Part shown: positions 1 to 27,416 of the stretch, piece by piece
Position numbering within the stretch: position 1 is the first letter of the stretch
How the letters are laid out: every line of letters begins with the position of its first letter
From: Candidatus Omnitrophota bacterium
GTDB lineage: Bacteria; Omnitrophota; Gorgyraeia; Gygaellales; Profunditerraquicolaceae
Length of the DNA stretch: 40,458 nt
Assembly (NCBI GenBank): GCA_028718225.1
Contig: JAQUMI010000008.1
Span: 1-40,458 of the forward strand
Direction of reading: 5' to 3'
The notes under the pieces: generated by a model
What the model saw: only the letters and a program-made list of their open reading frames with translations
What the model was told of the DNA's origin: nothing
The model's database searches: none
Translations under genes and position numbers: made by a program

Positions 1-279
1 CCCTATTCCCTGGCTGCCGAATGTTTTGTTAAATTAACCCATCTTCAGTTGTTTGATGAAGCAAATAAACGCACCGCCTGCCTTTTATTGAACTTTGTCC
101 TTTTAAAATTAGCAGCCCATTATTGTATCTTAAGCAAGGATAATGCCCATAGATATTTCAAGATAAGCAATGATATTGATTTTCGCCTGGGGAGTATTCC
201 GATCTTTCCGCTGAATAACATCTGGGAAAAGAGGTTAACCCAGCAATTCGCCAAATTTTTAAGCCAGAACTCTTTAAAA
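1..279 (+). other. Fic/Doc-like module, C-terminal part only, degenerate catalytic motif
   Basis: Translation THLQLFDEANKRTACLLLNFVLL resembles the Doc/Fic signature HxFxxANKRTA, but the expected His two residues before F is Gln (codon 46-48). Confidence 0.55.
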
Positions 280-3200
280 TCTTCCTCTAGCCCGGTAGAT
301 CCTGACGGAATATCAGCGAAGATTAGGAAAGAGTACGGTCCGGAGTTGTTGAAAATAACAAGATTATTGGAAAGAGGGGAATTTGAATCGCTGCTAAAGG
401 GTTTTGAAGCGCTTATCAGAAAGGCTTTCCCCGAGGCCAAGCCGTATTTTCTCGCTGAAAAAGGAGCAGTGCTTTCCCGGTTAGGAAGATATTCTGAGGC
501 CATTGACTTATACCGGCAAGCTTACGAAATAGCAAGAGCGGCAGGAATAAGCGATGAAGGTTTTTCTCTTGAGGTTAAAACAAGTGTTGAAATGAACCAG
601 GTCCTTAGTATCTACCAGCATTATAAGATGGAAAGAGAGCCTTTGGTTAAAGTTATTGAGAAGATCGAGCAATCCGTCCAGTCCTATCCGGAAGATATCG
701 ATGTATTGAGAATGGCTGCTTCTATATTGGCTAAGGAGCGGGTTTTTGGCCGGGCAGTTACGATTGCGCAGGCCGGGCTTAAGCTTAACGGGAATGCTTC
801 CGATAAAGCCGAGCTATGTCTGATTATCGGCAGTGTTCACGGCGCAGGTAAGAAGCTAGAGGAAGCAAAAGAGGCCTTTGTGGCTGGTTTGGAATTTTAT
901 CAGGAGAGCTTAAGGGATAAGCATTTTAGGTTCGCCGCAAAGGAAACCGCGGAGAAATTATATACAAATCTAGGAGAGATCTATCAGGAACAGGATAAGC
1001 CTGAAGAGGCTATAGCAGCATGGGAAAAAGCTGTCAGGTTATCAGGGGGGAATAATAGATTAACAGAAAAGATTGCTTTAGCCTGCATAAATTTTGCGCA
1101 TTACCAGAAAGCCCGGGAATATATACAGAATATCTTTAGTAATCATTTTGACGAAGTTCAGGAGTTATTAAGCCAGGTCGATACAGAAGAAGGTTACCGG
1201 TTGATTTTCCAGGAAGGCTTTTCAGGCGCAGAAGAAAATAAACGTAAGAGGTTCGCCGAGAAAATCCTCCAGGCAGAACTGAAGGAACAAGGGAAGGCCG
1301 TTATTGCCCTAAGAGAGATTATAGAAGAAGGCTTGGTTTCGGCGGCAAAGAAAATGAAAGGGAAGCTTAAGCCCCGGCATACCCGCATGCTTGAAGAAGC
1401 AGTGCCGGTTTTGATGGTTTTAGAAGGCCAGTTTTGCGTTAACCCTTATCAGGTCCCCCCGGAGATTAAACGCCGGATCCCCGAGCTCATGGAGTTAGAG
1501 GAAAGAAGCGGAAAAATTTTGCAGTGGTTCAGGAAAGCTTATGCTGATTTTTTAAGCGCTCCGGATGAACAGGCGCAATTTGAGTTTTGTATTAAAAAGT
1601 CCTTGGCTAACCGTAATAATATAATCATCCTGCTTAATTCAATTGATACGCTGGTGGATATAATAGATAGAGAAGTTTGCGTTGTTACAGATGAGCCGTA
1701 CATTGAAAAAATAGATTTTGTTTATTCCAAAGGGGATCCGGACTGCTTGGCCAGGGTTTATGAAGATGCCCAGGCAGGGCGGTATTTTCTTTCTTATGAA
1801 TTTAATCTTGCCTGTGAGCCCGGCTTCCTTGATGAAGAAGAGACAAAGAGAGCCGGTGAATACTTGTCGCAGCGCAAAAGAGCATACCAGGAGGTATTTA
1901 GATATAACCAGGTATTTAATAAAAAGCTGATTGCGGCATTGGCGGATAAGCGTTCTGCCAGAGGCCCTATAGCGGATATAAAGAAAAAGATAGGTTTTCT
2001 GCAGTCAGAAGTTGCAGGGATCACCGTTGGCCCAACAGGGAAATTGGAATTAAAGCCTAAAGAAGACTTATTTTCGGCTTTAAATGAGATGGCTGCTACA
2101 GCCGCAAAATTAAATAGCTCCAGCCCTCTCTTGCCTTTGGAGATTACAGAGGTTGAAGGATTAAAAACCCGGATTGAAGAAGCCGCTGCCAAATTGGACA
2201 AGGCAGGATTTTTTACTGTTCTTGAAAAGGAATTTTTCCATATTTTTAAAATAAGGGGTAATTGGGTCATTTGTGTCCCGGCAAGCTACATTCTAGTAAA
2301 TTTGCTGAAGAAAATATTAGACTTGTCATTTGAGAGGAATGGCGGTTTTAGCATCGGGATGATTTTCGGGGGCGTGGCTGTTAACGGAGAAAAATACGAA
2401 ATAGTTGACCACACCTGGCTAACGGTTTACTCCGGAAACAAAAGGATAATAAGCATAGACCCCACCTATGGGCAGTTTGACGGGGAATTCATCGGCAAAT
2501 TCTTAATTGTTGATTTTGAAGAGTCAAAAAATGCGGGATACCTGGAATGGGATGAATTTTTAGAAACCGAATTTGAAAAATACAGAAAGAGAAATTTCGG
2601 TCAGACCCCCGAAGAGATAATTTATAATTTAAGGAAGAGTTTCCGGGAAATGGCGGAAATCGAGCCGTTGAAGTTTTTATTCCCTCCTAGGCTGCTTCTG
2701 CTTTACGACGAAGGGTCTAAGACAAGAAGGGCAGAAGAAAATCCAGGCGTTATTCTGCCTATATTCAGGGAGAACCCGTTATTTGAAAACATCGATTTTG
2801 ATGCTATCGTAGAACGCCTGTATAGTTACTATTGTTCCAGTTCTCCGCTGGAATATGACTATATATATAGGATGCTGGCTCGGGGTGGCTTTAGCAGCAG
2901 CCCGGTTGAAATTAGTCCAATGCTTAAGCCTTTAAATATTACGTTAGATGACTACAGCATTTATTCTAAATTCGCTGATAATAAGTTGCAGGAAGGCGGC
3001 AAAAAAATAAAGGAGGGTAAGCCTAAAGAGGCATTAAGTTTTTATTTAACAGCCTTAGAGCACCCCTTATTCGGGTATAAGGCAATGCTTGGAAAATTTC
3101 CGCTTCGGCATAAGCTCTATCCTGAATTCGAACAGCAAATTTTAGCGCTGGAAAGCTGCTGCCAAGAAATTATTTCCAGTTACGGGCCAGAGCTAAATAG

Positions 3201-6200
3201 GCAGACCCCGGCAATGTCTTTTACTTATCAGGGGAGATTAAAGGCACTCCATAGCGAACTCAGCAAATTTTTAAAAAAAGACGGCCGGGACATGGATTTG
3301 CCTTTGATAGTGGTGGATGTTGGTATTGGCTCAGACGGCGCTCCTACTACTTTTGACTTAGCCGAAAGTTTATCCGAAGCAGGTTTTAAAAACTTAAGAA
3401 TTTATGGGATTGATAATAATACAGCCTTTTTAAAAAAAGCTGAAGATGCATTAGCCCGCAATGCACTGGCAAGTAAGCCTAACCTTAAGATTAAGTTCCG
3501 GTACGCCCAAGATTTTGATTTTTCCGGCCTAAAAGAGCTGTATGACAGAGAGGCTAATACCGGTAAGGTGGATATGGTTATTGCAGCCAATGTCTTAATG
3601 TATTACGATTCCTATAGCAGAAAAGTAGCTATAGAAAGGATGCTAAAGGTATTGAACGAAAAAGGCATCCTTTCCTTGTCCACCGGCCCCAATGTTGTAT
3701 ACCATGAATATATAGACTTTTCCATCTGTGCCAAGGATGGCATGTATATAGAAGGTTATGAGCAAAGGAGATTATTTGAAGGTTATGGGCGTAAGAGATT
3801 ATTTGCTGATAACAAGCCCTCTTTGTCATTAGAGAAGATTTTGAAAAAGGTCCCTCTTGATTCAGGAAATGGCCTGCTTATAGGCGCGATGAGAAACCCC
3901 AAGGGTACCTTTGTCATAAGGGAAAGAGTTTATGACCAAGAAGATTTTTTACATCTTATTTTAAAGGTTGATACTGATAATTTCAGTGAAGAATTAGCGG
4001 GGTGGAATAATTTTTCGTTAAAAGGGGATAAACTTATTGTTGGATCAAATCGTGATAAAGACGAGATTGAAGTAAAAAAGTTACGCTCTGGAGGGTTAGG
4101 TTCTTTTCTTATCTATTGCATGCTGTGTAAGGCTATAGAAAATTCAGCCAAAGAATATTTTATCTTTTCTCCCCGAACGCCTCTATTTAGCCATTTCGGC
4201 ATCAACCAGGAAAAAGTAGGCAGGAAAACCGGGTATTATATTTATACGGATAGCCTTAAGCCGGAGCAAATCGAACAGGCGCTTATTACTACCAGATCCG
4301 GCGAGAGAAAATTGAATTTTGAATTTATTTATAAAGAAAGAAAAAGCTCTTCGCCTGTAGTGGGCCCGCATCGGGGGCAGGCGGTACCTTTGTCAAAGGA
4401 TACCATCCAATGCAGCACGGAGCTTATTCTGGAAGAGTTAAGGCTTGTACCTTTGCAGTCCGCAGAAGAAAGGCAGATCTATCGCTATAATGGCGATTTT
4501 TTTACCCGGAGGGCCTGGGGAGTTATCGATAACGGCAAATCAAGGGCACTCTTTATCCGTATAGGGTATTTATTTTTCCTGGATTCTACAGCCTACTCCC
4601 GGTTAAGCCCGGCTTTAAAGGAAATTTTGGGACCCAACGTTATTTTATTGCGTAAGCTGTGGTTAAACGAAATAGCCAAATTCCCATTTTCCTGGTATAA
4701 CGCCCCCGTAATTATAAGCATGATGGAGAGAAGGATTACCGCGGATAAAACTATCTTGGATATAGGCGCCGGCTATGGGATTATTTCCTTAACAGCCTTA
4801 AAGCTTGGCTCCTCTTTTGTGCACTTGGTGGATTCTTATTGGCCGGCGTTACTTATTGCAAATATACAGTTAGAATTAAACGGCAAAGTAAGGGGCTTGG
4901 ATTTTCAGTTTCACTGCGGGGATATTACACAGAAGCCCTTTGTAAAAGAGCAGGTGGGAGTGATCAGGAATAATATCCGTGATAGCTCAGAAGAGATACT
5001 TGTTGTTTCAAATATCGGAGTATGGCCGGGAGTGTATACGGCGACAAATGCCCACAGTATCGGTTTAGTCAAGCATTTTCCTGAAATTACACATTTTACC
5101 GGAGCAGGATATACGTATACGCCCTCCCTGAATTTTAAACAGACAAGGCACGACTATGCTTTTATCCGGCGTTTGGGTTTTGAGGTTGAGCCTGAGCCGG
5201 TAAGGGTGGGCCGTACGGAATTAATCGCTAGCTGGAATGCGAAAAGAACCTCTTTGCCTCTAAATAAAATCAGGCCCGGGGCGGCTGCGCTTTCATCTAA
5301 AACCTCTGGTTCTCCGGTAGGTAAAATTGATATCTTTGATTTTGCCAAAATTGCTGGAGATATCATCGGCCGGCAGAGTATTCAAGGGGTGCTTATAGGA
5401 AATAGGTCATCCGGAAAAGTCTTGCTCATTTTAGGCCTTCCAGGTATCGGCAAATCCAGTATCGCTAGGCTATTAGTTTGTGATAAGGAGAGTAGTTACT
5501 TAGAGGAAAATAGCGGCCTTGATTGGGTTTTTCTGGGAGAAGAGATACTGATGCTGATTGTTATGAGCTTTCATGGAGATACTAAGCTGTTCTGTGAAGT
5601 TAGTGAATCCATTCGAGCAGGAGTTTTAGACGCATATCTTTCTTTCCGCTTAGGGAGGGATAATAGCAAGTATATTACGGATATTAAAAGTAAAAATGGA
5701 ATATATGCGCTTAGCGATATACTGGTCTTGGGGTATAACGAAGCAGGTATTTATAATCAAATAAAAATCCTGGAGAATAAGTTGGGCATTAGCTTCCCAG
5801 GCAAAGTCGAAATAAGATCACAAACTATTAAAGAGAGAAGTTTAGAAGAATATTTTAATATTGCTGACAGTATAAGGGCTTTGTCCGGTAATCCTGGCGG
5901 CAGTAAAATAAGCGGTTTAGTATACAGACCCCTTCCTTCCAGTTCGCCGGTGGAAAAAGGAGCCGGGGCAGCGCTAACTTATTCCAGAAAACTTAATTTT
6001 CCGATCACAGATTTTTCGAAAGCTGTTTTCCCGGGAATCAAGATATTTGATTTCGGCTGTGGCCACCCCATGTATCGTAACGTAAGCTGGGAGCAAAGCC
6101 TAAAAAAGCGCTATAAGGGGTTAGAGTATTATGGGGTAGATAATGATGGTTTATGTTTTGCCGAAATCATCGTTGATGCCGCAGGGGCTCTTCTGAACAG

Positions 6201-9200
6201 GTTGTACCGGGCAAGGAGAGATTTAGTTAGAAATATAACCGAGTATAGACGCCAGTCATATCTTGCTAATCTTCCGAAAAGATGGGGCAAGGCGGATATT
6301 GTTACATTACACTCCCCGTATGTTAAGGAAGATTACCTTATGCAGGTTGAGAACGGTACTGTTGTAAAAGCGGTCTATGATAATTTGAAGCCGGGAGGAG
6401 TGGCGCTTATTTTAACAGAGTGGCATATCTATGGGTTAAATGGGGATTTAAACATTACTCCGAAAAGAGTAGTGCGTAAGGCTTTCATGAAGAGCCTAAG
6501 AAATATTTTTGGGCGTGAGAATGTCAGAGAAACGCCGATCCCATCGGGGTATTTCCAAGAAGCATTAGTTTCATACAAGCTTTATAAAGGAAGGAATTCA
6601 AATAATGCTGATTTCGGCATAAGTTTTTTGCAGGCGCAAAAAATACAGCGTCCGGAGGCTAAGAATATATCGGCGGATAGAAATTGTGCTAGCTCTCCGA
6701 TAGCTGTTTCGCCGTGGCCGGCTAACCTAGTGCCTAAGTTGCGCCGGGTAGCGTCCGAATATTTCCCTTATGTTTTTAATAATTCTACGCTGGCAGAGGC
6801 CAAGGATGTTTTTAATCAACGAAGCAATAATTTTTTAAAGGAATTGCTCTCTCTGGTTGGCGGCAGGCCTCTGTCGAATTTAAGTTGGGATTATGAATAT
6901 CCTGTGAGAAGTATAAGATGGCTTGAACTAGCCCTGAAGGATAAATTAAATAATGCTTTTGATGCCGCAATATCATTATGCGAACCGGATTGGGTTGAAA
7001 TAAAAGGCCTTAAAGTCCCCGCAAGCTACCGCGGCAGAGTTAGCTTGAAGGTATTCTTTGATGGCAGGGACTTACATATTATTGTTACTGATAATGGCCC
7101 GGGATACGGGAATGCAGCGGATACTAATTGGAAACGTAACAGAGATATTTATTTCGGAAAGAGGGGCGGAGGTATCGCTTCTATCCGGGATATAGCTAGA
7201 GGTATTATTGTGCCGCATGCCGAAATCAAGAGGGGTGTTATTAGGTCAATAAAATTTAACTTATCCGTAGTGAGCGAATTAAAAAATAGGCTTATCCAGT
7301 CCGTATATATGGAAGACAGGAAAGAAGGGGATAATTTAAAATTTAATCTTCAAGAAACCAGGGAAATCTCAGAAGCCTCTAGCGGCAGCGAAAAATTCAA
7401 ATTTATCAGTAAAGAATTAGAATTCAGTTCGAATGACGCCAGGCAGGTTACGGTAACCGAGTTGATTATCCCCCGGGAATTTTTACAGCCTGTGAGAATG
7501 GCAAAAGAATTAACCGTTAAATATGGGATTATGCCGAAGGGGCCGGTATCTTCTTCGCCTGTAGAAATAGAACAGGCCTTAGCAGTTCTCTATGGAGAAG
7601 AGCGGCTGGAGTATTTCAGAAAAATTAAAAACGCGATTCTTCCTGGGGCAGCGGTGTTGTTCTATCCGGGGTTTGGTTCAGATGTCATATTGCCGCTGTA
7701 TCTTTTTAATCCTGCCGTAATCCTTGCGACAGACGAGCTTCCCTTCTCAGAGGAGGGGTCTAACGGCAGCCGATGGATAGAAGAATACGAGAGATATAAA
7801 GAGGAATATATGTACGATAAGCTTTTCTACGGGTTTTCCAAAACGGAATTACTGGAGGCAATCCGCTTTTTGGGCGCGCCGATTATATGGGAGCTGGAAT
7901 TATTAGGGGTAAAAAGGGAGGATATTAATATCGACGCATACAATAACAACATTGCGAGGGTATCCTTTATGTGGCACTCAAAGGATAAGGGGGATTCGTT
8001 ATATGAAATACGTTTCTTTGGCGGGATGGACCTGAATGATGTCGATAGATACCCTGATTTTTTAAAAGAGTCGATGGAAAAAGCGGACAGTTTTATGCAG
8101 AAAGCTCTCTGGTCGGTAAAGAATAAGTCGCCGGATATGCCGCTCCCAGCCGCTTTAAATTATATCGTTAGCAATTTAAACGGCCCTAAATCCACGGTTT
8201 TATCAGACAGGCGGTTAGGGCTGGACTTTGATTGTTGGGAAGAGGCCTACTATTCAGATGTTCAGTTTGGCCATTACAATGGAGTTGAGAAGGGAGGTTT
8301 CATTTACCGGCGTAAAACGCCGCTTATCCTTTCTGCTGAAAATATTGCCAGTTCGCCGATTATCCGGGATTCAAAAATAAGAGAAGCAATAAGGATCGGG
8401 CCCCTAAAAAGCTCTTCGCCATTAAAGGTATTATTTATAGATTATGAAGGTACATTAGTTTATGACCTTAAACCCAGAAGTGAGGCAGAGCGTCTTTATC
8501 GTTTCCAGCTGGAGTCCGGCGAGAGGATCTTCGTGCCTTTTGATGGCGCAGTCGCTTTTTTAAAAGAACTAAGGAAGCGAAAAATAGAAATAATATGCGT
8601 TTATGGCCTAACGGGAGCCGTTATCTATAAGGCGATAGAAGAAAATCTTTCCGGATTGCGTCCGGTTGACCACGTTAAGGGCGAGAGCAAGAAAAAGATA
8701 ATAGAGGTAGTTTTAAGCAGGAGAGGTATCCCTGCCAGGCAGGCAGCGTTTATTGATAACTTAGCTTCCGAAATCAAACAGGCAGTAGAAATTCCCGGGC
8801 TCACTGTTTTGGGTTTTTCGGCAGGCAACGAGAGTGCGGCAGGAGAATTAATCGCTGCCGGAGCCAGGGGGATTATAAGTGATTATTATGATAACGGCAG
8901 GGAAGCACTTAGGCTTTTGGGAATTATCTCTAAAGAGCCAGCATCTTCCCCTTTAGGCGGCTTTACAAATGATATAGTCCTCTTTCCGGAGAAGGGGAGT
9001 TCGCCCGTAAGAAATTATAATAAGGCATGGCAGCGCCCAATGGTGGGCAGGGGCGGTAGTATCGTAGAAGAGGCTTTTGCCTTACGCGTATCAGTTCAAG
9101 GCTATGCCCAGAAATTATTGAAGATCTTGAGTGATAATAATATACCTGTAAATGGAGCCCTCACCTACGCTATACCTAAAGTTGAAGAGGCTACAAAAGA

Positions 9201-12200
9201 TAAGCCGGCTAAGTGGTTCAAAATGGCAATGCAGCTGGGCATAGAGCTTATCCGGGATGAAGGGATACTCCCCTGTCCTGTTTTGGCTTTAGGCGTCCCG
9301 CCGGCGGTTAATTCTTCCGAAGGATGTATTAATGGATATGCAGATAACCTTAGACGCCTAAGGTCTTTGGTTATGGAAATAAATGAATCTACAAGAGAAG
9401 AGATGCTGAGAAAATTTGCTGCAACCTGGGAACGCCCCTCTGGCAAAGCAGCGGAACAGGTGTTAAGGAAAGAAGTTTATCGGAGGATCACTAGGGTATT
9501 ATCATCCTCCAGCTCTCCGGTAGAAGCGTATTTAGCGAAGCAGTTAAGCGGTTATGGCTATAACGATACTCTGCGCCGCAAGGGCTATGTTGATTGCCAT
9601 GAACAGAAGATAAGGGTTAATTTCTACGGAGAAAGCTACTCCAGAAAGGCCGAGACTTATTTTTATCGTTCCGGGAGGATAATCGTTATAGATAATCATT
9701 ATCTCCATTTATTCAATTTAGCGAGATTTACTGAAGATGGGGTGGTAGCGATAGGCGTAGATATATTGGATATGCTTCGGGAGGGTTACGCTTACGACTC
9801 TAGATCCTTTCAGCAATGGACCGTCGGATGCCTGTTGGCGATGCAGGAGCTTGAGTTTAAAGATAAAATAGTAGTGGATGCCGGCAGCGGCGACGGAGTA
9901 ATAACGTTTGCCGCCCTAGCTTTAGGCGCAAAAAAAATATACGCCCTGGATATGTATGAAGGCTCCCGGAAGGTCATTTTAAAGTCGCTCGGGATAAACG
10001 GTTTTCCGCAGGAGAAAATAAACTTCCAGTATCTCGGATATTTATTTTCTGAATTGAAGAGAAAGGCGCCTTTTGACAAAAAGGCAGATATCTTAGTAGC
10101 TAATTTGACGCAGTTCGGCATTCCCGGGTTAGCCGGGGATTATGATAACTGCCTGAAGAACGACGATTTGGCTGACCTGACCGACTTTTTTAGACCAAAG
10201 ACGGTTATTATTTCCGGCAATGGGAATATCGGGTATCTGAAGCAGCACTTAGCCAGAAAAAAGTTCGCTTACAGGGTTGAGAGAGAATTATATTTTGAAA
10301 ATGAATTTATAGGGGGGGTTTTAAGAGAAGCATCCAGTTCTCCGGCAGTGGGGCTTATGGATACTGCAGCCGGAAGATTAAGAATTCTGGATAATTATCT
10401 ATTCGAACGTTTGATTCGGGAGCCGGGCTTGGATTATAAAAAAGAACTCCTTATCGCAGATGTGGGATGCGGCAAAGGCGCAGTGACCAGCATTGAATTA
10501 AGTGATTACGCCAAGAGAGCCGGTAATTCCCCAAAAGTAACAGTAATCGCCTTGGATAGCAGCCAAGAGGCTTTCGAGAACATCAATATGCTTGATTCCG
10601 AAGGAGTAATTTTTCAAGAAGCAGATTTTCGCTCAAAATATTATTCCGGATTAAGGGTGGACATAGTAAGGTGTATTAATGTCATCCGTTGGCTTAATCC
10701 GTGCGATTTCATTGAAAATATCGCTGCTTTAGCCGGGCCTTTAACCGAAGGCGGAATTTTGATAGTCGGAAATAATGATATAGATGACTACAGGATACTT
10801 ATGGCATTTGTTTATCAGAAAAAAAACAGCGGTCTCTTAAAGAGGCAGATCTTGTTTGGTTTTGTTGGTGAGCGTCTGGATGAAAGATTTCTGGAGGTAA
10901 TTAAGGGTTTCCCGCAAGGAGATAAAGATATCCTCTCTTTCCGCAAGGATATCCCGGAAGCCCGAAGCGATTTCAAGAACGGATATGTTTTTAGCTTTGA
11001 AAGAGGGCTAGGGCAGCTGGGCTATGGAATTGTAAATAAAGACGGCTACAGGCTAACGGTTAAAAATTTTAACCCGCCTAGAATCGGAGCAATTCCGGTC
11101 CTGAATACCTCCAGCTCTCCGGCCAGGAAAGCTACTACTGTCAATCAATTATTTAATCAGCGCCAGATGGTTGCCTTAGAGCTTTTGTGCCAAAATGAGC
11201 CTTATAAAGAAATAGGCAGGGTTTTAAATTTAAGCCACCAGGGAACGGTAAAGAAAATCGTTCATTCAGTCCTTGATGCCTTTGGGCTGGAGCATAATAC
11301 CAAGAAAGCTTGGCCTCAACTGGTAGAGAAGGCTAAGGAATTTTATCCCGGTATCCTGATTAATCCGTTGACTGATACGGAAAAAAATATTTTAACCCTG
11401 ATACAAGAAGGCAGGATAAAGTCTAGGGATATTGCCAGTAGCAGGCACGTGACAGTAGAAGCAAACAAGAGGCATATTCGCGGGATTAAAAATAAACTTG
11501 GTATTAAGGGAAAAGGATTTGGTCCGGCGGTAGCCGAGAAAATCCTGAAGCAGGCCTTAGAGATGAAATTACTTTCTCATATGCAGAATAAGGCGGTATT
11601 CCTTTCTGATGTGCAAATAAATGCATTATCGTTGAGAGCGGCAGGTCTTTCTTATGGAGAGATCAATACGCAGCTTGGGATAGCCAGAAGTGATGTTTTG
11701 TGTAGTCCTGCGTATATCAAGAAAAGGGCGAGGCAGCAACAGATTAAGATAACGCTGAAAAGCGGAAGCCATAATACGCCGTTCGCTACATCTTTGATTT
11801 TAATCAGGGCATTACAAGCTCAAGGCCAACTGCCCAAGGAGCTTGATCTGTCCAGTTTGCAATTAAGGGCAAAAAAGGAAAAATTTGGCTTCGCTAAACT
11901 TGAAATATTGAGGCTCTTAGCTTGCGGGAAGGATCTTAATGAGGTTATGGAGATACAAAAAAGGTCATCTTACGGTTCCCTTTGGGGCCTGCTTAAGAAA
12001 TCTTGCCAAGCCTTAGAGGTAGATATCGAGATTTCAGAGAAGGCCGATTTTCTGCCTCTTCTACAGGCTGCCAGGCGGGAGGGCTTAATAGAAGGATATC
12101 TGACTATGGATGAATTAATTGCTGAAATGGAAAAGAAAATCGAATGCTTAGTTTCCATAGGTATCTTAAAAACAAGAGGCCAAGTATTAGCAGGGTTGGA

Positions 12201-15200
12201 AGAAAGAGCCAAGCGCCGAGGGGATATTATTAGTTTAGCTAGGATAGAGCGTTATTATCAAAACGTCGAGCCGCGTATTAGCATGGAATCTAATTCCATC
12301 AGCGCCGGCTCTCCGTTAGCGAAGAACCATATGGCCAGTCCCCTTTATAAGATGCAGGAGCAGGCATTTACCGGTAGATTATCCAGCTCTCCGGCGGTTC
12401 AAGATTCGGCATTAATGCCGATGAAGTCTTTTTTTGTGAATGCCAGAGTATGGAGCGAACTACCCGATTACTTTACCGAGATAATCACAAGGTCAATAAG
12501 CTGGGCAGAGGGAGATATTTATCCTTATGGTATAAGGGGGAGAAGGACCGCGGTATTTCCTTTAAAGCGCCCTGTTGAATGCAGCAACGGTAAAATTATC
12601 CGGGCCCTGGAGATCAAAGGCATCTTATTTAAAGAAGGAGACTCAGTCAGTCATCCTTTGAAAGAATTATACCGGGTTTTCAAGGTCCCGGAATTGGATG
12701 CGCAGGGTCAGATAATCCTTCGTGATTCAACAGATTTAAAGGGCGGCTTGGCGTATAGAGCTTCCGTCAACGAATACCGGATACTAAAGGAACTTAACGG
12801 CAGAGTCGACAATGACTATGCTTATCCTGTCGGTTACGGCCAATACCGTGATTACCGGAATAAAGATGAGGCTTTTGGGTTTTTCATAAGGGGGGTGAGC
12901 CAATATCCCGGAGAGCGGATATGGGATCTTTTAAGGAGAAGGCACGGGAGCAATCTTTACAATAGTATTTCTTTATGGAGGAAGTACTCCGGTTTATTGG
13001 AAAAGTACGGTTTAGCCCTGCGCGATTTTCATGACGCCGGTTTCTTTCATAATTATCCGCATTTAGGGAATATCTCCTGGAATAGGGAGAGGGAGAGGAT
13101 AATCTTTCACGATTTTGAAACCTGCTTGAGCATAAAAGACGAAGCCCGCGAAAGAAAGGTCAGCTACCGCCTGATGGATTTATTTTCCGCCTATGCCCAC
13201 TTCCTGAATTTTGCTTTTGGCAAACACGAGAATTTTCAGGATTTGTTTTCTTTGGACAGCAGGTTAAGCGCACGCCAAAACCCTTTTATTCCTTTCTTTA
13301 AGGGGTACTTTAACAGTGCGGAAGCAGATTTGCATTCTTTATCCCCGCAGGTTATTGACGGATTCTTCTCCGCAATGATCGAGCCGGTTACAGAAATAGA
13401 TAATGAGATTATCCGGATGCTCTTGGACAGCGAAGTTCCGGGGCAGGATACCGGCAGCAGCCTTTCTTCTAAGGCAAGCTCACCTTTAAATAACCTCCTT
13501 CAAAAAACAATTTCAGTACTGTGCGGGGATTCGGAGGTTAGGCCGGAGCTTTTCCGTTTTATAGAGGAAATTCGCCGCCAGGCACTTGTTCTTCTTTTTG
13601 CCGGTTCTGATATGCGGGAGAATAATGCGTTAGTAGATTATAAATGCCGGGAGCATGATAATTATGATAGTTTATATAGCGAGATAAAACCATTTATCAG
13701 GTTTATCTCCGTTACTCCACTGTATAGCAATATTCTGTGCTTTTTGGCCTGTACCCTAGAGAATTTGAACTGGCATGTGAGGGACGGATTAGCCTTGATA
13801 GTAGTGTATTTTACCAAGGATATGTGGATAATTTCAGTAAACGACAACGGAAGAGGTTTTCGCGATAAAAAAGGGCGGCCGGTGAGAACCGATGAAGTCA
13901 TAAAATGGAAGAAAAGTCTGGGGAAAAACGGCCGAGAAGGCAAGGGACTTACCGTAGCAGCAGGGAGGGAAGCCGACTTAACGGTTATCTCTCAACCCCG
14001 GGAAAGTTCAGTAATAGCTAAGCTGCCATTTATCCTGCATCCTAAGTGCCGCTCTGTATTTAAGATTGAAAATGATCGCAGAAGGGGAACGAGTATAACC
14101 GGTTATTTTTATAGGGGGTTACTTACTCCGGATAAGCAGGAGTGGAAAGAAGAAACTATCGGCCGCCTTGAAGCGGATTTAAAACAGGGGATTTATTCGC
14201 CGATAATTTCCAGTTCGCCGCTAAAAAAGGACCCTAATCAGCAACTTTACCGAAAGGCTATTTTTTATCTTAGGTTTAGAAATGTCGCTGAGGCGAGCAG
14301 GGCGGCTTTGGAATTGGCGTATAAGGATCCAAAATTAGCCTACGATTTTTACTTGAGGTTTATAAGGTTGAATAAACCGGGAGTTTTGGAAGAAGTCCAT
14401 AAAGGCGCTCTAAGGTTGTTGATCGCTTATGATGTTTTGGGGAATGAACTTTTTAAGGAGTTGGCTAGGGTCCGGAACCGTTCCAGTTCTCCGGTTAAAA
14501 TTGGCCGGAAGCATATAGTTGAGATCTGCGGGGCAAGGTTGAAATTGATCCCTTACGGAGATTTTGCTAATGCAAGGGTAGAAATACGCACCGGCGACGG
14601 TAGGGAGGTAGGATTTATATATGGAGTTGGGGAATTTTGTTCTGACGGCCTCAAGAGGTTTGGCCTGAGGGGTATGAAATTAGAAGCGGATTTTAGAGGT
14701 ACGAATCTATCCCTGGGATTAATCAGGGAGTTTATGAAGATTTTTCCCGCAGACTGGATGCATAGAAACCACAATCCTTTGTTAAGTATCATATTCAAGG
14801 AGCATTTTGGATTTGGCCCGGTTAATCCTGATTTTCGCAACCGGGTATATGTTGGCAGGCCAGATGAAAATAAGATCATTCCGCTATTTTTCCCTTACCA
14901 TCAAGAGCCGCAGAAGGCAATTCCGGATAATGGATTGAATTTAGGATTTAAAATAACCAGTACAACCCCTCATCCCTATACGAAAACTTATATTATGACA
15001 GAATATACAGGCTGCGGGAGTTTGCCGGCGGGGGCACTGGTGAGGACTTATAGTTCTGCCGCCTCCTCGCCGTTATATAATAAAAATTTTGAATTAACTC
15101 AAACTAATTTTACTTTAGATAAGGCGTATTCATTATTACGAGAGTGTAAATTTAGCGGAGATTATGATTTAGTATATTCCAGGGCATTATTACGTGAGAT

Positions 15201-18200
15201 TTTAAACTATCCCATTGAAAAAATTATGGTAGTAGGTATGGGATTGAGATATTTACCGTTATTATTGGCTATGGTAGGTAAACAGGTAGTTTTTGTAAAT
15301 AAAGATATAGCACGTCTAAATATTGTGCAGAATGATGCGCGTACAATAAATGCACTTTTAAAAGAGCCAAGGAAAAAATTGCGCATAGAATTTATTCAGG
15401 GTGAGATAGGTTCTTTGGACATAAAAGCCAATAATTTAGAACCAGAAAGTTTTGACCTAGTTACATTCGTTGATTTGATTGGCGGTATCCCTCAAGGAAA
15501 TCCCAGAGATTGGCTTTTAAAGGCCAAAGTATTGCTTAAGCCAGAAGGCTATCTGGTTATTGATGAAGATAAGGCCAGGGAAGGCCAAAGTAGCCTCATT
15601 GATTACTTTTCTGATATTTTTCCTGAATATGAACAGCTAGCAGGGGGAGCTTACCTTAAAGGGGCATGGAATGGAGAACGCAGTAAGAACCGTTTCCTTA
15701 AAATTAAATCATCTATCGGCGCGCCCAAGAGATTATTTGAGGCAGGTTCTTCTTCCCCTGTTTTTTCTTTAAGCTCGGTAATACTATCTGAATTGAAATA
15801 TTGGATGGACAATTATCCGCCGCTAATTAAAAATAAAAAAGCCACTAAATATAATGAATGGGAACCGACCTGTGATGAACCATCAGGGCTAATAGAGCCG
15901 CTGCCGGTTTTAAAAAGACGCCCGCTGAACTATGCTGGTAATGGAGATAAAGGAGAAAAACCTAACTGGAAGACACTAGAAGTAAAAAATTATTTTACTG
16001 TGCAATTTCCCAGTAGAAAAGCCCAAGGGATAATATATCGGGAAATAAAACTCGGCAATAAAGCAGCCCTACGCATGTTTATAGATATAGGATTAGCAAG
16101 AATAGCAGCTCTAGCGGTTAGCTTTATAAAAAGCCTCCCCCGCAAAATAATTCAAGATGAAGATTGCTATGCTGGCGCCCTTGATATCATTCAACATCCT
16201 TTAATTTACAGGTATGTGAGGGATTTAGCGGTAGCTTTTAATTATTTTCCAGATAACGGTACTTTTGAAGGGTTTATCGAAGAGTATTGGAAAAATTTCT
16301 GGCGTAAGGAAATGGCGTGCGAATTAAATAACGGGATTATTCCAGTCCCCCATAATTTTTATCAGCGTAGACACAAAGTAGTAGAGGCAGCACGGGTTTT
16401 AGAAGAATCAGGCCTGTGGGCGAGTTATGAAAGAATCAGCCAGGTATCCGGTATGGATCTGGATAGTGTTCACGCTATGATTGGCGGTTGCCCTCTTGAT
16501 GGAAATATAGTATCTTTTGAGACACCTATCTCTGATAATAGGGAAGAGAGTTTTACATTAGAAGATACTATCGGGTTCGAACCGAATAGCTGGACAGGGA
16601 AATTGACCGTTCTTATAAATTATCTAACTGAGAGAATGAAAAAATGCAGGGTAGGATGGCAGCAACAAATTGTATTTATATACTATCAAATCTTGAAATA
16701 TGGGTGGGCTGAAACCAATGAAGAGTTAGCCAAGAGGGGCTTTACTCCAAAAAATAATCGTAAGCGTATTCACCAAATGGCGCAGGAAGCTGTCAAAAAG
16801 TCCGGATTAAATGCGGAAGTGCTAGAAAAAATTCAAGATGAATTAGGTATAGGCAGTTCTTCTTCGCCGGCAGAACAAAATATCTCTACTCCTTACGTTT
16901 TTTCTATGTCAGCGATTAATCAGAATTATAGGTATACCTTTGATAACTCTATTTATACAATTGCTTTAAGTTTTAGGATACCTCCTTCCCAGATTTTATT
17001 AGCTTTACCGTTTCGGATGAGAATGAACTGGCGTAAAGAAGAGAAACAGTTTATGAAGATCGAGAAGGTATTAGGACGGTTTAATTGTTCGGGCCTGGAA
17101 GAGTTACTTGAGCGCGCATCGGAAATAAGAATAAAAGCTACAAGAGAAGGGTGGAAGGAAACGCAAAAATTGCTTATGTCATTATTCCCTTTTTTACCTA
17201 AAGAAGAGAGAGAACCTAAGTTGGATTTTGTCCCTGAATTTGACTGTAATGAACTTTTTATATTAAACCGGAGCGTTGCTTCTCTGTCTAATCCTGTCTG
17301 TACATCGGGAGATTTTCAAACTACAGACCCTTTTAGCCACGCTAAGGATAATTTTACCTATATAGTGAAAGTATTGCAACTGGAAAGGTTGTTGCATAAT
17401 AATAATGTAGAGGTAAACGCTCTGATTATTTTTTGCGATAATTATTTTACAGAAGCATTGCATTCGTTGATCCGGAAAAATGAGCAGAAGATAAAAATAC
17501 TGCGATATGCCAGGGATCGTGGTTTGCCGATTGTTCTGATACCTTCGCGTCTTTGTGATGATCCAGGGCTCTATGAATATACCAAACAAGCTGAAAAATG
17601 TATCGACGGGTATTCTTATCGTCGGGAGGGGCTGTTAATTCCTTCCAGCTCGCCGTTGCTTAAAGGGCGCAGCCCGATGACAGATAAAAATAACGTTTCT
17701 TTTTTATCAGGAGTATTTTTAGGGGAACTGGGGGTGATCTCTTCGGGTTATGCAGAGTTGAATAGTGTGGTTATTCGGATTTTGAAAAAGCTTAGCGGCC
17801 AGTATTCTTATACCCGGGTTCATTCTGAACGGGTGGCACAATATAGTTTGCTTTTGGCTGAAGAGTTGGCGCAAAAAAAGAATGGTCCGTTTGATTGGGC
17901 AGACTTCCTCTTGAACGCCTATCTTGCCGGGCTCCTGCATGATATTGGTAAGGTTAACATTCCTAAAAAGATTATTAATGGTAAAGCTGGCCTCAATGAA
18001 AAGGAGCTTATCAAAATAAAAACCCATGTTTCTGGAAGTGTCAGGATCCTTAAAAAATATCCTATTTTCCCAAGAGAGGTGATAGACGGCGTCCGGTTCC
18101 ATCATCAGAGATGGAACGGGCAAGGTTACCCATATCAGTTAACCGGAGAGAACATTCCATTAATAGCTTCTATTGTTTCTGTGGCAGACGTATTTGATGC

Positions 18201-19572
18201 TACAACAAATAGGCGCCCTTATCATAAAAAAGTTTTGGATCCTCAAGCTACTAGAAAAAAAATTATATTAGGCAGGGGTACGCAGTTCAACCCTAAAGTA
18301 GTGGATAGTTTTGAAGAGTTATGTTTTGAAAATAAAATTGAGCCTATTATGGAAAATGAGGTCAGTGATTATGTGAGAACGATTATGTCGGGAATAATCG
18401 AGCAGAAAAAAATAGAAACCGCCAGCTCGCCGGTAGACAATTACAAAAAGACCCTTTTCCAGACCTTTAGTTTAGCGATGCAAGGCAAGGATTACCCGGC
18501 CGCATTGAATTGTCTGAAGAAGATTTTATTCCGTTACCCTCACGATGCAGAAGCCATGACTGCTTATCTTAAGGTTACCCGGGAAGCAGGCTCTCTTAGG
18601 GAGGATGCTTTTAGAGATATAAACGAAATAATCCAGGCTAAGCAGTTTTCTTCGGCTGCGTATTATATCCGTTCAGTTTTATACTATGATAAAAAGGATT
18701 TTGCGAATTGTCTGGCGGATTTGTGCCGCGCAGTTGAATCCGCCGACGGAGTAAGCAGTCATGTTTTACAGCTTTTGAATAAAATAATCCGCCTGGATAT
18801 GATATTAGAGAAAGAGCATAAGTTTTACGTCGCCGGTATCTCCCTGGTTCAAGAAATAGAAGATACCGTCCGCAAATTTTTGACCCGCAAAATGTCGCTA
18901 AAGGATTGGGATGTTTCTATCTGGGAAGGGATAAGTTACATAATCCTGGCCAATGCTTTATTAAACAGCGGCAGATACGCAAAAGCTCAGGAGAAACTGG
19001 CTATTGCCCTATCCGCTGAAAATATTGCCGGGATAAAAGCAAGTGGGTTAGAATTAAGCAGGTATTTATCCCGAGGTTTTAATCTGCGGGCGAGCATATC
19101 TTTATTTTTGGCGGAAGAGTCTTTAATCAAGGCAGAATTGGGCTGGGTGAACGGCCTTATTATTTCTAACGAAGATAAATCAGAGATTGAAAAAATGCTC
19201 AGGCAGGCGGATGAGAATATAGCCATGGCCGAGGCCAGCGACAGGACTTATATTGACGGAATTAACCATTTGTGGATACGAGACTTAAGGGGCAAGCTGC
19301 AGTTTATTATTAATAATGATTACGCGCGGATTTTATTAACGATCCCCCATAAAGAGGGCTTACGGGTCTTGCATCAAGCTATTGCGGCGGTCTTACGGAA
19401 AAAGGGTGGCCGCAGGTTCAATCTCGATGAAGTAAATGCTGTTGGAATCAGTCTAAATATGAAAGATGTGGAATGCCTCAAATCAATAGAGGTAATTCAT
19501 ACTATCCAGGATTATCCCCGGACATATTATTATTCCGGGATGAAATTATTTATTGTTCCGTTGCCAAAATAA
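1..19572 (+). CDS. Giant modular polyprotein-like protein, 5'-truncated by the window edge (at least 6,507 aa as tracked)
   Basis: Single open frame to the TAA at 19570-19572. Frame is also open from base 1 ([16 protein letters not shown] before the TTG at 49). 26 recurrent [SAG][SG]SP[VLAI] motifs separate recognisable domains. Confidence 0.93.
   Translation, partial: [6523 protein letters not shown]
298..2115 (+). other. TPR-rich module
   Basis: TPR-like helices such as [27 protein letters not shown] and [28 protein letters not shown]; bounded by SSSPV (283-297) and SSSPL (2116-2130). Confidence 0.7.
2131..2835 (+). other. Transglutaminase-like / cysteine-protease-fold module
   Basis: Cys in WVICVPASY (codon 2272), His in [14 protein letters not shown] (2410) and Asp in [11 protein letters not shown] (2458) fit the Transglut_core C-H-D pattern (HxWxxVYxxxxWxxxDPTxGQ). 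Confidence 0.5.
2908..4344 (+). other. SAM-dependent methyltransferase module (CheR-like) with possible GNAT-like C-terminal part
   Basis: [24 protein letters not shown]...LRIYGIDNN...[13 protein letters not shown] resembles Rossmann methyltransferase motifs; [19 protein letters not shown] resembles a GNAT acetyl-CoA loop (weaker). Confidence 0.55.
4360..5304 (+). other. Class I methyltransferase module (PrmA-like)
   Basis: [48 protein letters not shown]. Confidence 0.65.
5320..5937 (+). other. P-loop NTPase/kinase-like module (possibly HPr-kinase-like)
   Basis: Walker A in [20 protein letters not shown]. Confidence 0.55.
5953..6687 (+). other. Methyltransferase-like module
   Basis: [16 protein letters not shown]...[17 protein letters not shown]...[11 protein letters not shown]...[11 protein letters not shown]. 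Confidence 0.5.
6703..7548 (+). other. GHKL-type ATPase module 1
   Basis: N-box-like [13 protein letters not shown], G1 box [9 protein letters not shown], G2-like [14 protein letters not shown]. Confidence 0.7.
7564..8346 (+). other. Unassigned module (about 261 aa)
   Basis: Bounded by SSSPV (7549) and ASSPI (8347); no recognised family motif. Confidence 0.5.
8425..8940 (+). other. HAD-like hydrolase module with altered motif I
   Basis: [14 protein letters not shown] (DxE instead of DxD), ...[17 protein letters not shown]..., GRPV-type [38 protein letters not shown]. Confidence 0.55.
9010..9501 (+). other. Unassigned module (about 164 aa)
   Basis: Bounded by GSSPV (8995) and SSSPV (9508); no recognised motif. 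Confidence 0.5.
9523..10332 (+). other. Class I methyltransferase module (PrmA-like)
   Basis: [36 protein letters not shown]...[13 protein letters not shown]. Confidence 0.65.
10348..11109 (+). other. Class I methyltransferase module
   Basis: [18 protein letters not shown]...[16 protein letters not shown]...[13 protein letters not shown]...[11 protein letters not shown]. Confidence 0.65.
11125..12303 (+). other. Tandem LuxR/GerE-type HTH-like module
   Basis: [92 protein letters not shown]; two weaker repeats follow. Confidence 0.6.
12397..13473 (+). other. Protein-kinase/APH-fold-like module, probably pseudokinase
   Basis: [39 protein letters not shown] aligns by eye with HGDLHPGNI...DFG/DFE, but the catalytic Asp position is Tyr. 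Confidence 0.5.
13489..14208 (+). other. GHKL-type ATPase module 2
   Basis: [19 protein letters not shown] (G1) and [24 protein letters not shown] (G2). Confidence 0.6.
14497..15060 (+). other. Possible GNAT-like module
   Basis: [28 protein letters not shown] resembles a GNAT substrate/CoA segment; weak. Confidence 0.3.
15076..15747 (+). other. Methyltransferase-like module
   Basis: [38 protein letters not shown]...[15 protein letters not shown]...[13 protein letters not shown]. Confidence 0.5.
15763..16854 (+). other. Sigma-70-like module (regions 2/3 and possibly 4)
   Basis: [26 protein letters not shown]...[48 protein letters not shown]...[49 protein letters not shown] follows sigma-70 region 2 to region 3 order (IRIPVH..., ISLDTPIGED...). 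Confidence 0.6.
16873..17643 (+). other. Unassigned module (257 aa)
   Basis: Bounded by SSSPA (16858) and SSSPL (17644); no recognised motif. Confidence 0.5.
17659..18420 (+). other. HD-GYP domain module
   Basis: [89 protein letters not shown]: full HD and GYP signatures. Confidence 0.9.
18436..19572 (+). other. C-terminal TPR-like module
   Basis: [48 protein letters not shown] and similar helical repeats. Confidence 0.55.
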
Positions 19573-19682: not shown

Positions 19683-20039
19683 ATGGAAGAGCGCCGGAGC
19701 GTAGCGCGGTGGCAGATTAATAAAGAGGCGGGCTTGACCGTAGAGGAAGGGTTAAAGCCTATCCCTTGCGTGGTGGAAGATATAAGCATTCAGGGAATGC
19801 GCATCTCTTCGCGCAAGGCACTTTTTCCGGAAGTTTTCGCAAATTTTAACCTGGCCCTGACGGAAGATTTCGCGTTTAAGGCCGGGGCACAGCTAGCCTG
19901 GCAGGATAACGCATATGAAAGGAATATCTACGGGCTTTCTTTTAACCGGATCGAAGAATCGGCGAGAAACCGGATAAGCGAATATGTCAAAGATAATTTT
20001 CCCGGCGAGTTAGCCAAACAATGGTGGAAAGGCTTATAA
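19683..20039 (+). CDS. PilZ domain protein
   Basis: RRSVAR (RxxxR) and EDISIQGMRIS (DxSxxG); SD AAGGAGGG upstream of the ATG. Confidence 0.8.
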   Translation: MEERRSVARWQINKEAGLTVEEGLKPIPCVVEDISIQGMRISSRKALFPEVFANFNLALTEDFAFKAGAQLAWQDNAYERNIYGLSFNRIEESARNRISEYVKDNFPGELAKQWWKGL

Positions 20040-20699
20040 ATGCAGGAGCATAGAAAATTACCCAGATGGCTGGTGAACCGGCAAGCCAGTATCAAGTTGG
20101 AAGGCCAGGCCCGGGAAATCCTTTGCCGGATTAAAGACATTAATTTTAAAGGCATGCAGATTGCCTTAAGCTATAAACTTAACGTAGATAGCTATGTAAG
20201 ATTTAGCCTGGCTTTGTCCGGTGAGTCTTTTTTAGAGACTCAGGCCTGGGTGGCCTGGCACAAGCAGCTAGACGGCTGCGATATTTACGGTTTATATTTT
20301 AATAAATTGAATAAAGAGGATGAAGACAAAATTTATCAATTTCTTTACCATAATATTCAAAAGGGAGCTTCAAAAGGAGGTGAGAATATGGAAGACCGTA
20401 GAATATTCCAGAGGTTCAACTACAGGCTGGGGGCCAGGTTGCTTAACCTGAATAATGGTAATGAAATGGCAGCTGAAACCAGTGATGTCAGCGCCAAGGG
20501 TATCGGGTTAGTGCTTAAACAGGAGGTAGTCATTAATACTCCGCTTGAGGCCTGGCTTCATATCCCGGACACAAGCGAGCCGCTTTATGCCAGGGGTATC
20601 GCAGCCTGGTCAAAACGGGATAGCGATAATCAGTACCGTATAGGCATGGATTTAGAGAGGGCAGATTTGATGGGTTTGTCCAGAATTTTAAGAGTTTAA
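20040..20699 (+). CDS. Tandem PilZ domain protein (two PilZ-like domains, internal start candidate at 20388)
   Basis: HRKLPR / KDINFKGMQI and RRIFQR / SDVSAKGIGL. Confidence 0.78.
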   Translation: MQEHRKLPRWLVNRQASIKLEGQAREILCRIKDINFKGMQIALSYKLNVDSYVRFSLALSGESFLETQAWVAWHKQLDGCDIYGLYFNKLNKEDEDKIYQFLYHNIQKGASKGGENMEDRRIFQRFNYRLGARLLNLNNGNEMAAETSDVSAKGIGLVLKQEVVINTPLEAWLHIPDTSEPLYARGIAAWSKRDSDNQYRIGMDLERADLMGLSRILRV

Positions 20700-20717
20700 A
20701 AAAGAGTTTAAAAGAGC

Positions 20718-20746
20718 TTGACCTTGCCTTAAAAATATGTTAAATT
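20718..20746 (+). promoter_or_regulatory. Candidate promoter of the sugar ABC transporter operon
   Basis: TTGACC (20718-20723), 17-bp spacer, TAAATT (20741-20746). Confidence 0.4.
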
Positions 20747-20791
20747 TTATATTCTTACCTAAATAAAGTAAGGAATAAAATCTAACTTAAT

Positions 20792-20811
20792 CCTGCCTGC
20801 CGACAGGCAGG
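20792..20811. repeat. Palindrome CCTGCCTG-CCGA-CAGGCAGG
   Basis: Perfect 8-bp stem; related palindromes at 27342-27360 and 33951-33967. Confidence 0.8.
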
Positions 20812-20834
20812 GAGAAAGGCGAGGGTTAGCAACT

Positions 20835-23002: not shown

Positions 23003-23005
23003 AAA

Positions 23006-27304: not shown

Positions 27305-27320
27305 GGCTAGTCTACAACTT

Positions 27321-27416
27321 AGGGACGGTTCTCAACACAAGGCCTGCCTGTCCGGCAGGCGGACAAAAGTATCCCCCTATCGGGGACGCTTTAAAATTGG
27401 CTTGAGAACCGTCCCT
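27321..27416. repeat. Composite inverted-repeat (REP-like) element
   Basis: AGGGACGGTTCTCAA (27321-27335) perfectly inverted at 27402-27416; encloses GCCTGCC-tgtcc-GGCAGGC and a TCCCC...GGGGA hairpin. Confidence 0.8.

What the first reader, a model, noticed from the sequence alone, without database searches (positions are those of the whole stretch)
1..19572. Giant polyprotein-like ORF punctuated by 26 [SAG][SG]SP[VLAI] motifs between unrelated domains
Seen directly: a stop-free frame of more than 19.5 kb with motif cores starting at nt 283, 2116, 2836, 2893, 4345, 5305, 5938, 6688, 7549, 8347, 8410, 8941, 8995, 9508, 10333, 11110, 12304, 12382, 13474, 14209, 14482, 15061, 15748, 16858, 17644 and 18421. 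S-P is invariant; the next residue is V (11), L (9), A (4) or I (2); position -3 is S (18), A (7) or G (1). Each copy falls between recognisable domain types rather than inside one. Nearly all modules look like soluble cytoplasmic signalling or modification enzymes, unlike adhesins, NRPS/PKS or known giant surface proteins. Inference: the motif is either a processing site that releases the modules, or a standard linker used in module shuffling. I know of no described system with this combination.
Basis: partly seen in the sequence, partly recalled or inferred. Interest (0 to 1): 0.92.

Follow-up and report, generated by a model that had tools for sequence, protein, structure and literature searches.

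The report
Motif-jointed giant bacterial polyprotein array
In the uncultured bacterial phylum Omnitrophota, enormous single genes string together dozens of unrelated enzymes separated by one short conserved tag (Ser-Ser-Ser-Pro-Val type) at which whole enzymes are swapped in and out, and which probably also marks where the chain is cut, so giant bacterial proteins may be polyproteins.

Summary
The frame is stop-free (6,523 aa, running off the contig start) and all 26 motifs are where stated, against 0.18 expected. The window is an Omnitrophota genome; giant ORFs are known in this phylum (PMC10066038), but a motif was not found described. The same motif is the most enriched tetrapeptide in giant ORFs of related genomes, up to 57,099 aa, and as SSPA in Ca. 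Velamenicoccus archaeovorus. Homologous modules start and stop at the motif. Between two close relatives modules were gained, lost and moved, with homology switching inside the 15 motif nucleotides. SSSP is under protein-level purifying selection inside fast-evolving linkers. No motif lies in a Pfam domain (0/96). Tat and lipoprotein signal peptides often directly follow motifs. Complete ORFs begin with a signal peptide plus a C39-like peptidase and sit between Tad-pilus and PilZ genes. So the motif is a standard module joint (shown) and probably a processing site (inferred). Against: one congeneric genome has the modules but no motif, and no protease is identified.

The parts
1..19572 (+). 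Giant ORF, 6,523 aa seen, 5' end beyond the contig
   Evidence: dN/dS 0.255 against G005
1..282 (+). Module 1 (C-terminal part): Fic/DOC-like end
   Evidence: PF02661 E 0.0039, below cutoff; homologues in G005, G018
283..297 (+). joint SSSPV
298..2115 (+). Module: TPR protein, absent from G005 at this joint
   Evidence: PF07719 E 4.6e-12
2116..2130 (+). joint SSSPL
2131..2835 (+). Module: transglutaminase-like Cys/His/Asp pattern by eye (DHTWLTV..DPTYGQF), no Pfam match
2836..2850 (+). joint SSSPL
2893..2907 (+). joint SSSPV
2908..4344 (+). Module: CheR-like methyltransferase
   Evidence: PF01739 E 4.7e-7
4345..4359 (+). joint SSSPV
   Evidence: conserved in G005
4360..5304 (+). Module: PrmA-like methyltransferase
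   Evidence: PF06325 E 5.7e-7
5305..5319 (+). joint SGSPV
5320..5937 (+). Module: P-loop NTPase-like
   Evidence: PF20720 E 9e-4, below cutoff
5938..5952 (+). joint SSSPV
5953..6687 (+). Module: Rossmann methyltransferase-like by eye (FDFGCGHP), no Pfam match
6688..6702 (+). joint ASSPI
6703..7548 (+). Module: GHKL ATPase-like (DNGPG box)
   Evidence: PF02518 E 0.09, weak
7549..7563 (+). joint SSSPV
   Evidence: conserved in G005
7564..8346 (+). Module: unknown, shared with G005 and G010
8347..8361 (+). joint ASSPI; left edge of a G005-specific insertion
8410..8424 (+). joint SSSPL
8425..8940 (+). Module: HAD-like hydrolase
   Evidence: PF00702 E 0.005, weak
8941..8955 (+). joint ASSPL
8995..9009 (+). 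joint GSSPV
9010..9507 (+). Module: unknown; homologue in motif-less G004
9508..9522 (+). joint SSSPV; site of a 58-aa insertion in G005
9523..10332 (+). Module: PrmA-like methyltransferase
   Evidence: PF06325 E 3.7e-11
10333..10347 (+). joint SSSPA
10348..11109 (+). Module: methyltransferase, shared with G005, G001
   Evidence: PF13649 E 1.9e-5, below cutoff
11110..11124 (+). joint SSSPA
11125..12303 (+). Module: LuxR/GerE-type helix-turn-helix, two copies in G018, absent from G005
   Evidence: PF00196 E 3.2e-7
12304..12318 (+). joint AGSPL
12382..12396 (+). joint SSSPA
12397..13473 (+). Module: ABC1/aminoglycoside-kinase-like, catalytic HxD looks degenerate by eye
   Evidence: PF03109 E 0.009, weak
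13474..13488 (+). joint ASSPL
   Evidence: conserved in G005
13489..14208 (+). Module: GHKL ATPase-like by eye (DNGRGF), no Pfam match
14209..14223 (+). joint SSSPL; G005 has a response-regulator module inserted here
14224..14481 (+). Module: small 91-aa segment, shared with G005 and G001, joints at both ends
14482..14496 (+). joint SSSPV
14497..15060 (+). Module: acetyltransferase-like by eye; 44% identical to a motif-bounded module of the V. archaeovorus giant ORF
15061..15075 (+). joint ASSPL
   Evidence: conserved in G005
15076..15747 (+). Module: methyltransferase
   Evidence: PF13847 E 1.5e-4, below cutoff
15748..15762 (+). joint SSSPV
15763..16857 (+). Module: unknown
   Evidence: no match
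16858..16872 (+). joint SSSPA
16873..17643 (+). Module: unknown; translocated relative to G005 (aa 6957-7219 there)
17644..17658 (+). joint SSSPL, in a segment with pLDDT<50
17659..18420 (+). Module: HD-GYP-type phosphodiesterase
   Evidence: PF13487 E 1.7e-24
18421..18435 (+). joint ASSPV, exactly at a pLDDT<50 gap between two helical domains
18436..19572 (+). C-terminal TPR-like module that also ends the giant ORFs of G005, G006 and G010
19683..20039 (+). PilZ gene, conserved downstream neighbour of the giant locus
20040..20699 (+). Double-PilZ gene, conserved downstream neighbour

Best explanation
This is the 3' part of the Omnitrophota giant gene, which lies between Tad-pilus and PilZ genes. 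It encodes a chain of complete, unrelated protein modules separated by a standard joint, [SAT][SAG]SP[VLIA]. Shown: modules are gained, lost and moved with breakpoints inside the joint; the SSSP core is kept by selection at the protein level; the joint lies between folded domains. Inferred: the joint is also recognised in trans, most likely by a protease that releases the modules as separate proteins, so the gene works as a polyprotein. Probability: standard exchange joint about 0.92; cleavage at the joint about 0.5.
For: Enrichment: 26 vs 0.18; SSSP or SSPV is the most enriched tetrapeptide in the giants of six relatives without being searched for, and SSPA (32 vs 0.15) in V. archaeovorus. 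Joints at module edges: 13 of 20 G000-G005 block ends lie within 15 aa of a motif in both genomes (random 0.25); over all pairs 64 of 214 (random 1.2). Three clean empty-site/filled-site events switch homology inside the motif. Selection: SSSP changes in 5/81 codons (most of them misaligned breakpoints) vs 97/341 in the flanking 10 aa, p=5e-6, with equal synonymous change. Different codons for the same peptide in another family, G029. 0/96 motifs in Pfam domains; pLDDT gap at the joint. Processing in particular: 7 of 11 Tat-like and 4 of 8 lipoprotein-like signals lie within 60 aa after a motif (random 1.2 and 1.0), and a PF10518 TAT_signal match, E 6.5e-10, begins 5 aa after an SSP; hydrophobic segments are enriched just after and depleted just before motifs. 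Genome-wide dialect: G002 tolerates A/G at position 2 in both of its motif-bearing families.
Against: G004, same genus, has a 35,009-aa giant ORF with homologous modules and the same head domain but no motif, and no other joint was found. The motif is not avoided in ordinary proteins (13 vs 6.5 expected). No responsible protease is identified; family S9 is absent in 12 genomes, and the C39-like head also occurs where the motif does not. Internal signal peptides could be relics of captured genes. The whole ORF starts, in complete relatives, with its own signal peptide, which fits export in one piece as well. Pairs of motifs 18-26 aa apart are not explained. No peptide data could be examined.
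Confidence: 0.5

Rival explanations
1. Joint without cleavage. SSSP[V] is a preferred hinge between modules of one uncut giant protein; it is kept because it spaces the domains and because new modules enter at it. The giant works in one piece, possibly exported or surface-bound.
For: All the exchange evidence fits. Complete ORFs start with a signal peptide. Published work treats the V. archaeovorus giant as one protein forming a coat (PMC10066038). G004 has modules without any motif.
Against: A plain Ser/Pro hinge would not need an almost invariant tetrapeptide while its neighbours change at 28%. It does not explain Tat and lipoprotein signals starting right after motifs.
Confidence: 0.34
2. 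Exported multi-effector protein. The modules are effectors, sent out together by the Tad/Sec route and cut apart outside or in prey cells, as in MARTX toxins (a sub-case that overlaps with the best explanation).
For: Signal peptide and Tad neighbours; effector-like activities (Fic, methyltransferases, GNAT, kinase- and phosphatase-like); a second Sec-led family with the same joints; predatory lifestyle reported for V. archaeovorus (PMC10066038, PMC12583861).
Against: Internal Tat and lipoprotein signals would be useless outside the cell; many modules look like ordinary cell enzymes (PCMT, PEP-utilising enzyme, response regulator); no delivery evidence.
Confidence: 0.2
3. DNA-level site: the 15-nt sequence (TCCAGYTCGCCGGTA) is the target of a recombinase or cassette system, and the peptide is a by-product.
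For: Codon bias in motifs (TCG 0.45 vs 0.08, TCC 0.57 vs 0.16); breakpoints inside the motif; in G001 every exact copy lies in the giant ORF on its coding strand.
Against: Synonymous sites in motifs change as fast as elsewhere while amino acids do not; G029 uses other codons for the same peptide. The bias is better read as shared descent of copies.
Confidence: 0.07
4. Assembly artefact or decaying gene fusions.
For: Most genomes are MAGs; a few modules look catalytically degenerate by eye.
Against: Long frames in many independent assemblies including the closed V. archaeovorus chromosome; dN/dS 0.255; conserved locus across the phylum.
Confidence: 0.02

Closest known systems
Omnitrophota giant ORFs, e.g. 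the 39,678-aa ORF of Ca. Velamenicoccus archaeovorus (Kizina et al. 2022 as cited in PMC10066038; Seymour et al. 2023, PMC10066038)
   Same: Same gene family and locus: C39-like head in relatives, Tad genes upstream, PilZ downstream, SSP joints, and one module 44% identical between window and V. archaeovorus with joints at the ends.
   Different: Joint motif, module exchange and internal signal peptides are not in that report as far as I could read it; it describes few annotated domains and poor conservation.
MARTX toxins (multifunctional autoprocessing RTX), from own knowledge
   Same: One very large protein with several exchangeable effector domains, release by a cysteine protease.
   Different: No MARTX cysteine-protease (CPD) or RTX match in any Pfam scan; cleavage there follows Leu in linkers without a fixed joint motif; far fewer modules.
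Viral polyproteins, from own knowledge
   Same: One ORF, many unrelated proteins, repeated short site at the borders.
   Different: Not viral; module content and order vary greatly between close relatives; no protease or cleavage shown.
Peptidase family C39 (double-glycine leader peptidases such as 6mpz, ComA 3k8u)
   Same: Head domain of the giants: profile E 4.4e-7 and fold match to 6mpz, Cys and His aligned.
   Different: Not attached to an ABC transporter; motif is not Gly-Gly; also present in motif-less giants.

Membership tests
Omnitrophota giant ORF family | ORF longer than 20 kb in an Omnitrophota genome | tested here: inconclusive
   19.5 kb seen, cut by the contig edge; a same-locus relative has a 90-kb frame; relatives' records are titled Candidatus Omnitrophota.
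Omnitrophota giant ORF family | PilZ genes and sugar ABC transporter directly downstream | tested here: met
   Window 19683-23854 and G001, G006, G018, G004, G029, V. archaeovorus.
Omnitrophota giant ORF family | Signal peptide plus C39-like head and Tad genes upstream | not testable with these tools
   Upstream part is missing from the assembly (one search found no head in G000); present in G001, G004, G029, V. archaeovorus.
Omnitrophota giant ORF family | SSP-type joints | tested here: met
   but absent in G004 and G031.
Processed polyprotein | Conserved recognition site at module borders | tested here: met
Processed polyprotein | Cleavage at the site | not testable with these tools
   Needs proteomics or biochemistry.
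Processed polyprotein | Cognate protease | tested here: inconclusive
   C39-like head present but also in motif-less giants; S9 absent.
MARTX toxins | CPD autoprocessing domain and RTX repeats | tested here: not met
   No such match in Pfam scans of the pieces examined.
NRPS/PKS megasynthases | Carrier, condensation or ketosynthase domains | tested here: not met
   No such match.
Peptidase C39 | Catalytic Cys and His in the C39 fold | tested here: met
   For the head domain of relatives: C117 and H202 invariant in 63 sequences, PF03412 above cutoff, Foldseek 6mpz E 3.2e-6.

The most novel reading that the evidence does not exclude
Omnitrophota giant genes are protein-level operons: dozens of complete proteins, some with their own Tat or lipoprotein signals, are translated as one chain of up to tens of thousands of residues and cut apart at a phylum-wide SSP joint by a dedicated protease, while the same joint lets whole modules be exchanged between genomes.
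Probability: 0.45. Interest if true: 0.96.

Novelty: categorically new. Interest (0 to 1): 0.88.

Why it matters
Giant bacterial proteins are an open puzzle: reports describe them as poorly conserved with few domains (PMC10066038), and a survey says that some might be cleaved but that motifs and proteases are hard to predict (PMC11573180). A joint motif that predicts module borders makes them readable, explains the poor conservation as module turnover, and makes cleavage testable with public data. If cleaved, they would be bacterial polyproteins on a scale that I know no description of.

Tried and rejected
Chance or composition: rejected (reversed-motif control). A repeated DNA element inserted in coding sequence: rejected as sole cause, codons vary. 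Motif as a general linker of all proteins: rejected, 301,114 aa of other genes show no SSSP excess (3 vs 3.2), with the exception of one modular secreted family. Avoidance of the motif elsewhere as a protease signature: tested, not found. An alternative joint in motif-less G004: none found. Post-proline S9 peptidase as the protease: absent. Former start Met after the joint: no Met excess. Standalone copies of the modules: in 97 family genomes at E 1e-12 almost all hits of the first half lie in frames of more than 5,000 aa; the two exceptions are frames of 1,198 and 1,696 aa, not examined further. Search for one unknown module in 85,462 species genomes by peptide patterns found nothing. A density correlation between the two motif families over 8 genomes was not significant.

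Full report
Observation. The window is G000:C8:1-40458, a 1.04-Mb genome in 53 contigs, 83% complete. Frame 1 is open from the contig start to the stop at 19570-19572, 6,523 aa. Codons differ between copies, so this is not one DNA repeat. Since the ORF runs off the contig, the true gene is longer.

What the modules are. Cutting at the motifs and scanning Pfam gives a Fic-like end, TPR proteins, several methyltransferases (five with Pfam matches), a GerE helix-turn-helix, an HD-GYP-type domain (E 1.7e-24), and weak NTPase, HAD, GHKL and kinase-like matches; about nine segments have no match. Some assignments (transglutaminase-like, second GHKL) are by eye only.

Organism and gene family. Relatives found through the head domain are nearly all titled Candidatus Omnitrophota, including Ca. 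Velamenicoccus archaeovorus LiM. Giant ORFs over 20 kb are already reported in this phylum as poorly conserved, with few annotated domains (PMC10066038). A search of 40 relatives with the second half of the ORF found its modules only in other long frames, in a changed order, except the HD domain, which is common. Frames of 10,499 (G005), 18,962 (G018), 30,185 (G001), 7,253 (G010), 2,728 and 7,597 (G006), 57,099 (G002) and 42,913 aa (G029) carry the motif far above expectation. Counting all tetrapeptides without a prior, SSSP or SSPV leads in the giants of G000, G001, G002, G005, G006, G010 and G018, and SSPA (32 vs 0.15) in V. archaeovorus, where [hydrophobic]-SSPA recurs with a median spacing near 290 aa. 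It is absent in G004 (35,009 aa) and G031.

One locus across the phylum. In G001, G004, G029 and V. archaeovorus two T2SSF (TadB/TadC-like) genes, with Flp-pilin-like genes further out, lie upstream of the giant gene; PilZ genes and a sugar ABC transporter lie downstream there and also in G000, G006 and G018. The window shows the downstream half. Complete ORFs start with a signal-peptide-like segment and a C39-like peptidase domain: PF03412 E 1.3e-7, invariant Cys and His over 63 sequences, profile match to the double-glycine protease 6mpz at E 4.4e-7, AlphaFold pLDDT above 90 over most of the catalytic part, Foldseek best hits all C39. The V. archaeovorus giant has the same head. In 61 of 64 head-domain loci the frame stays open to the end of the stretch fetched.

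Exchange at the joint. G000 and G005 share blocks of mostly 81-91% identity in a changed order: several modules are present in only one of them and one is translocated (G000 aa 5620-5882 = G005 aa 6957-7219). Of 20 block ends, 13 lie within 15 aa of a motif in both proteins (random 0.25); over all pairs 64 of 214 (random 1.2), and 49 of 184 among blocks below 60% identity (random 0.9). In three clean cases the shorter form matches the left copy up to the motif (21-24 of 24 nt) and the right copy after it (19-22 of 24 nt). A module at G000 aa 4829-5003 is 44% identical to V. archaeovorus aa 37450-37622 with joints at the ends of both.

Selection and structure. In orthologous blocks the SSSP core differs in 5 of 81 codons (most of them misaligned breakpoints), the flanking 10 aa in 28%, the bodies in 13%; synonymous change is equal everywhere. 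Core against body alone is p=0.066. dN/dS of the modules is 0.255. In G029 the same peptide is written with other codons. No motif of 96 lies in a Pfam domain (15 expected), and a model over the last two modules falls below pLDDT 50 at residues 269-274, the joint. A PCMT module in G001 is a complete enzyme with about 17-25 aa to each joint.

Signals for processing. In V. archaeovorus three Tat signals follow joints, one a Pfam TAT_signal match 5 aa after SSP. G001, G002 and G006 have lipobox signals directly after joints. By simple rules 7 of 11 Tat-like and 4 of 8 lipoprotein-like segments lie within 60 aa after a motif (random 1.2, 1.0). Such signals make sense if the module's N-terminus is freed, but they could be relics. 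A genome-wide dialect (A or G at position 2 in G002, in both motif families) suggests recognition in trans.

A second family. Outside giants the motif is not enriched as SSSP (3 vs 3.2 in 301,114 aa); the looser motif is 13 vs 6.5, and more than half of those hits fall in two members of a Sec-led family. That family has a constant N-terminus, a variable middle and a constant C-terminus, often in many copies per genome; the variable parts of 23 sampled members hold 41 strict motifs against 1.07.

Verdict. The joint is real, found across the phylum, and the place of module exchange. Whether the chain is cut there is open: selection, signal peptides and dialect point to it; G004, the missing protease and the leading signal peptide of the whole chain point the other way. 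I marked the novelty 'categorically new' for the organisation, not for the existence of giant ORFs, which are known; the literature available here excludes bioRxiv and many journals.

Noticed in passing
L217:15558-19919 (G000:C1), L235:6797-10129 (G002:C3), L267-L286: Multi-copy secreted family with constant N- and C-termini and a variable middle with the same joints (metallophosphatase, GNAT, methyltransferase modules), found in 31 of 40 genomes searched.
   Followed up: partly
G004:C9:33540-138569 (L071-L076): 35,009-aa giant ORF of the same genus with homologous modules and head but no joint motif of any kind found.
   Followed up: partly
G002:C6:1-171300 (L173-L181): Open frame of 57,099 aa, cut by the contig start, with tandem repeats (KEVLGGKIDEQ) at its visible N-terminus.
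   Followed up: no
L051:10119-19805 (G001): OprB porin, a complete Fic gene with HTH gene, and a run of Flp-pilin-like genes just upstream of the giant; the window's first module is also Fic-like.
   Followed up: partly
12 Omnitrophota genomes: Peptidase family S9 (PF00326) absent in all 12, present in 13 of 14 control genomes.
   Followed up: yes
end of the G004 giant (L071) and window:27246-28634: By eye the C-terminus of the G004 giant (NKNMNEEWFGIVA) resembles the glycosidase-like gene at window 27246-28634, as if a neighbour had joined the giant.
   Followed up: no
L190-L196 (V. archaeovorus aa 19393-32725), L186-L188 (G002:C6): Long stretches read N in the supplied sequence, so motif counts there are lower bounds.
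   Followed up: no
window:2131-2835; G005 aa 4815-5058: Module with a transglutaminase-like Cys/His/Asp pattern, a second possible cysteine protease inside the array, but only in G000 and G005.
   Followed up: partly
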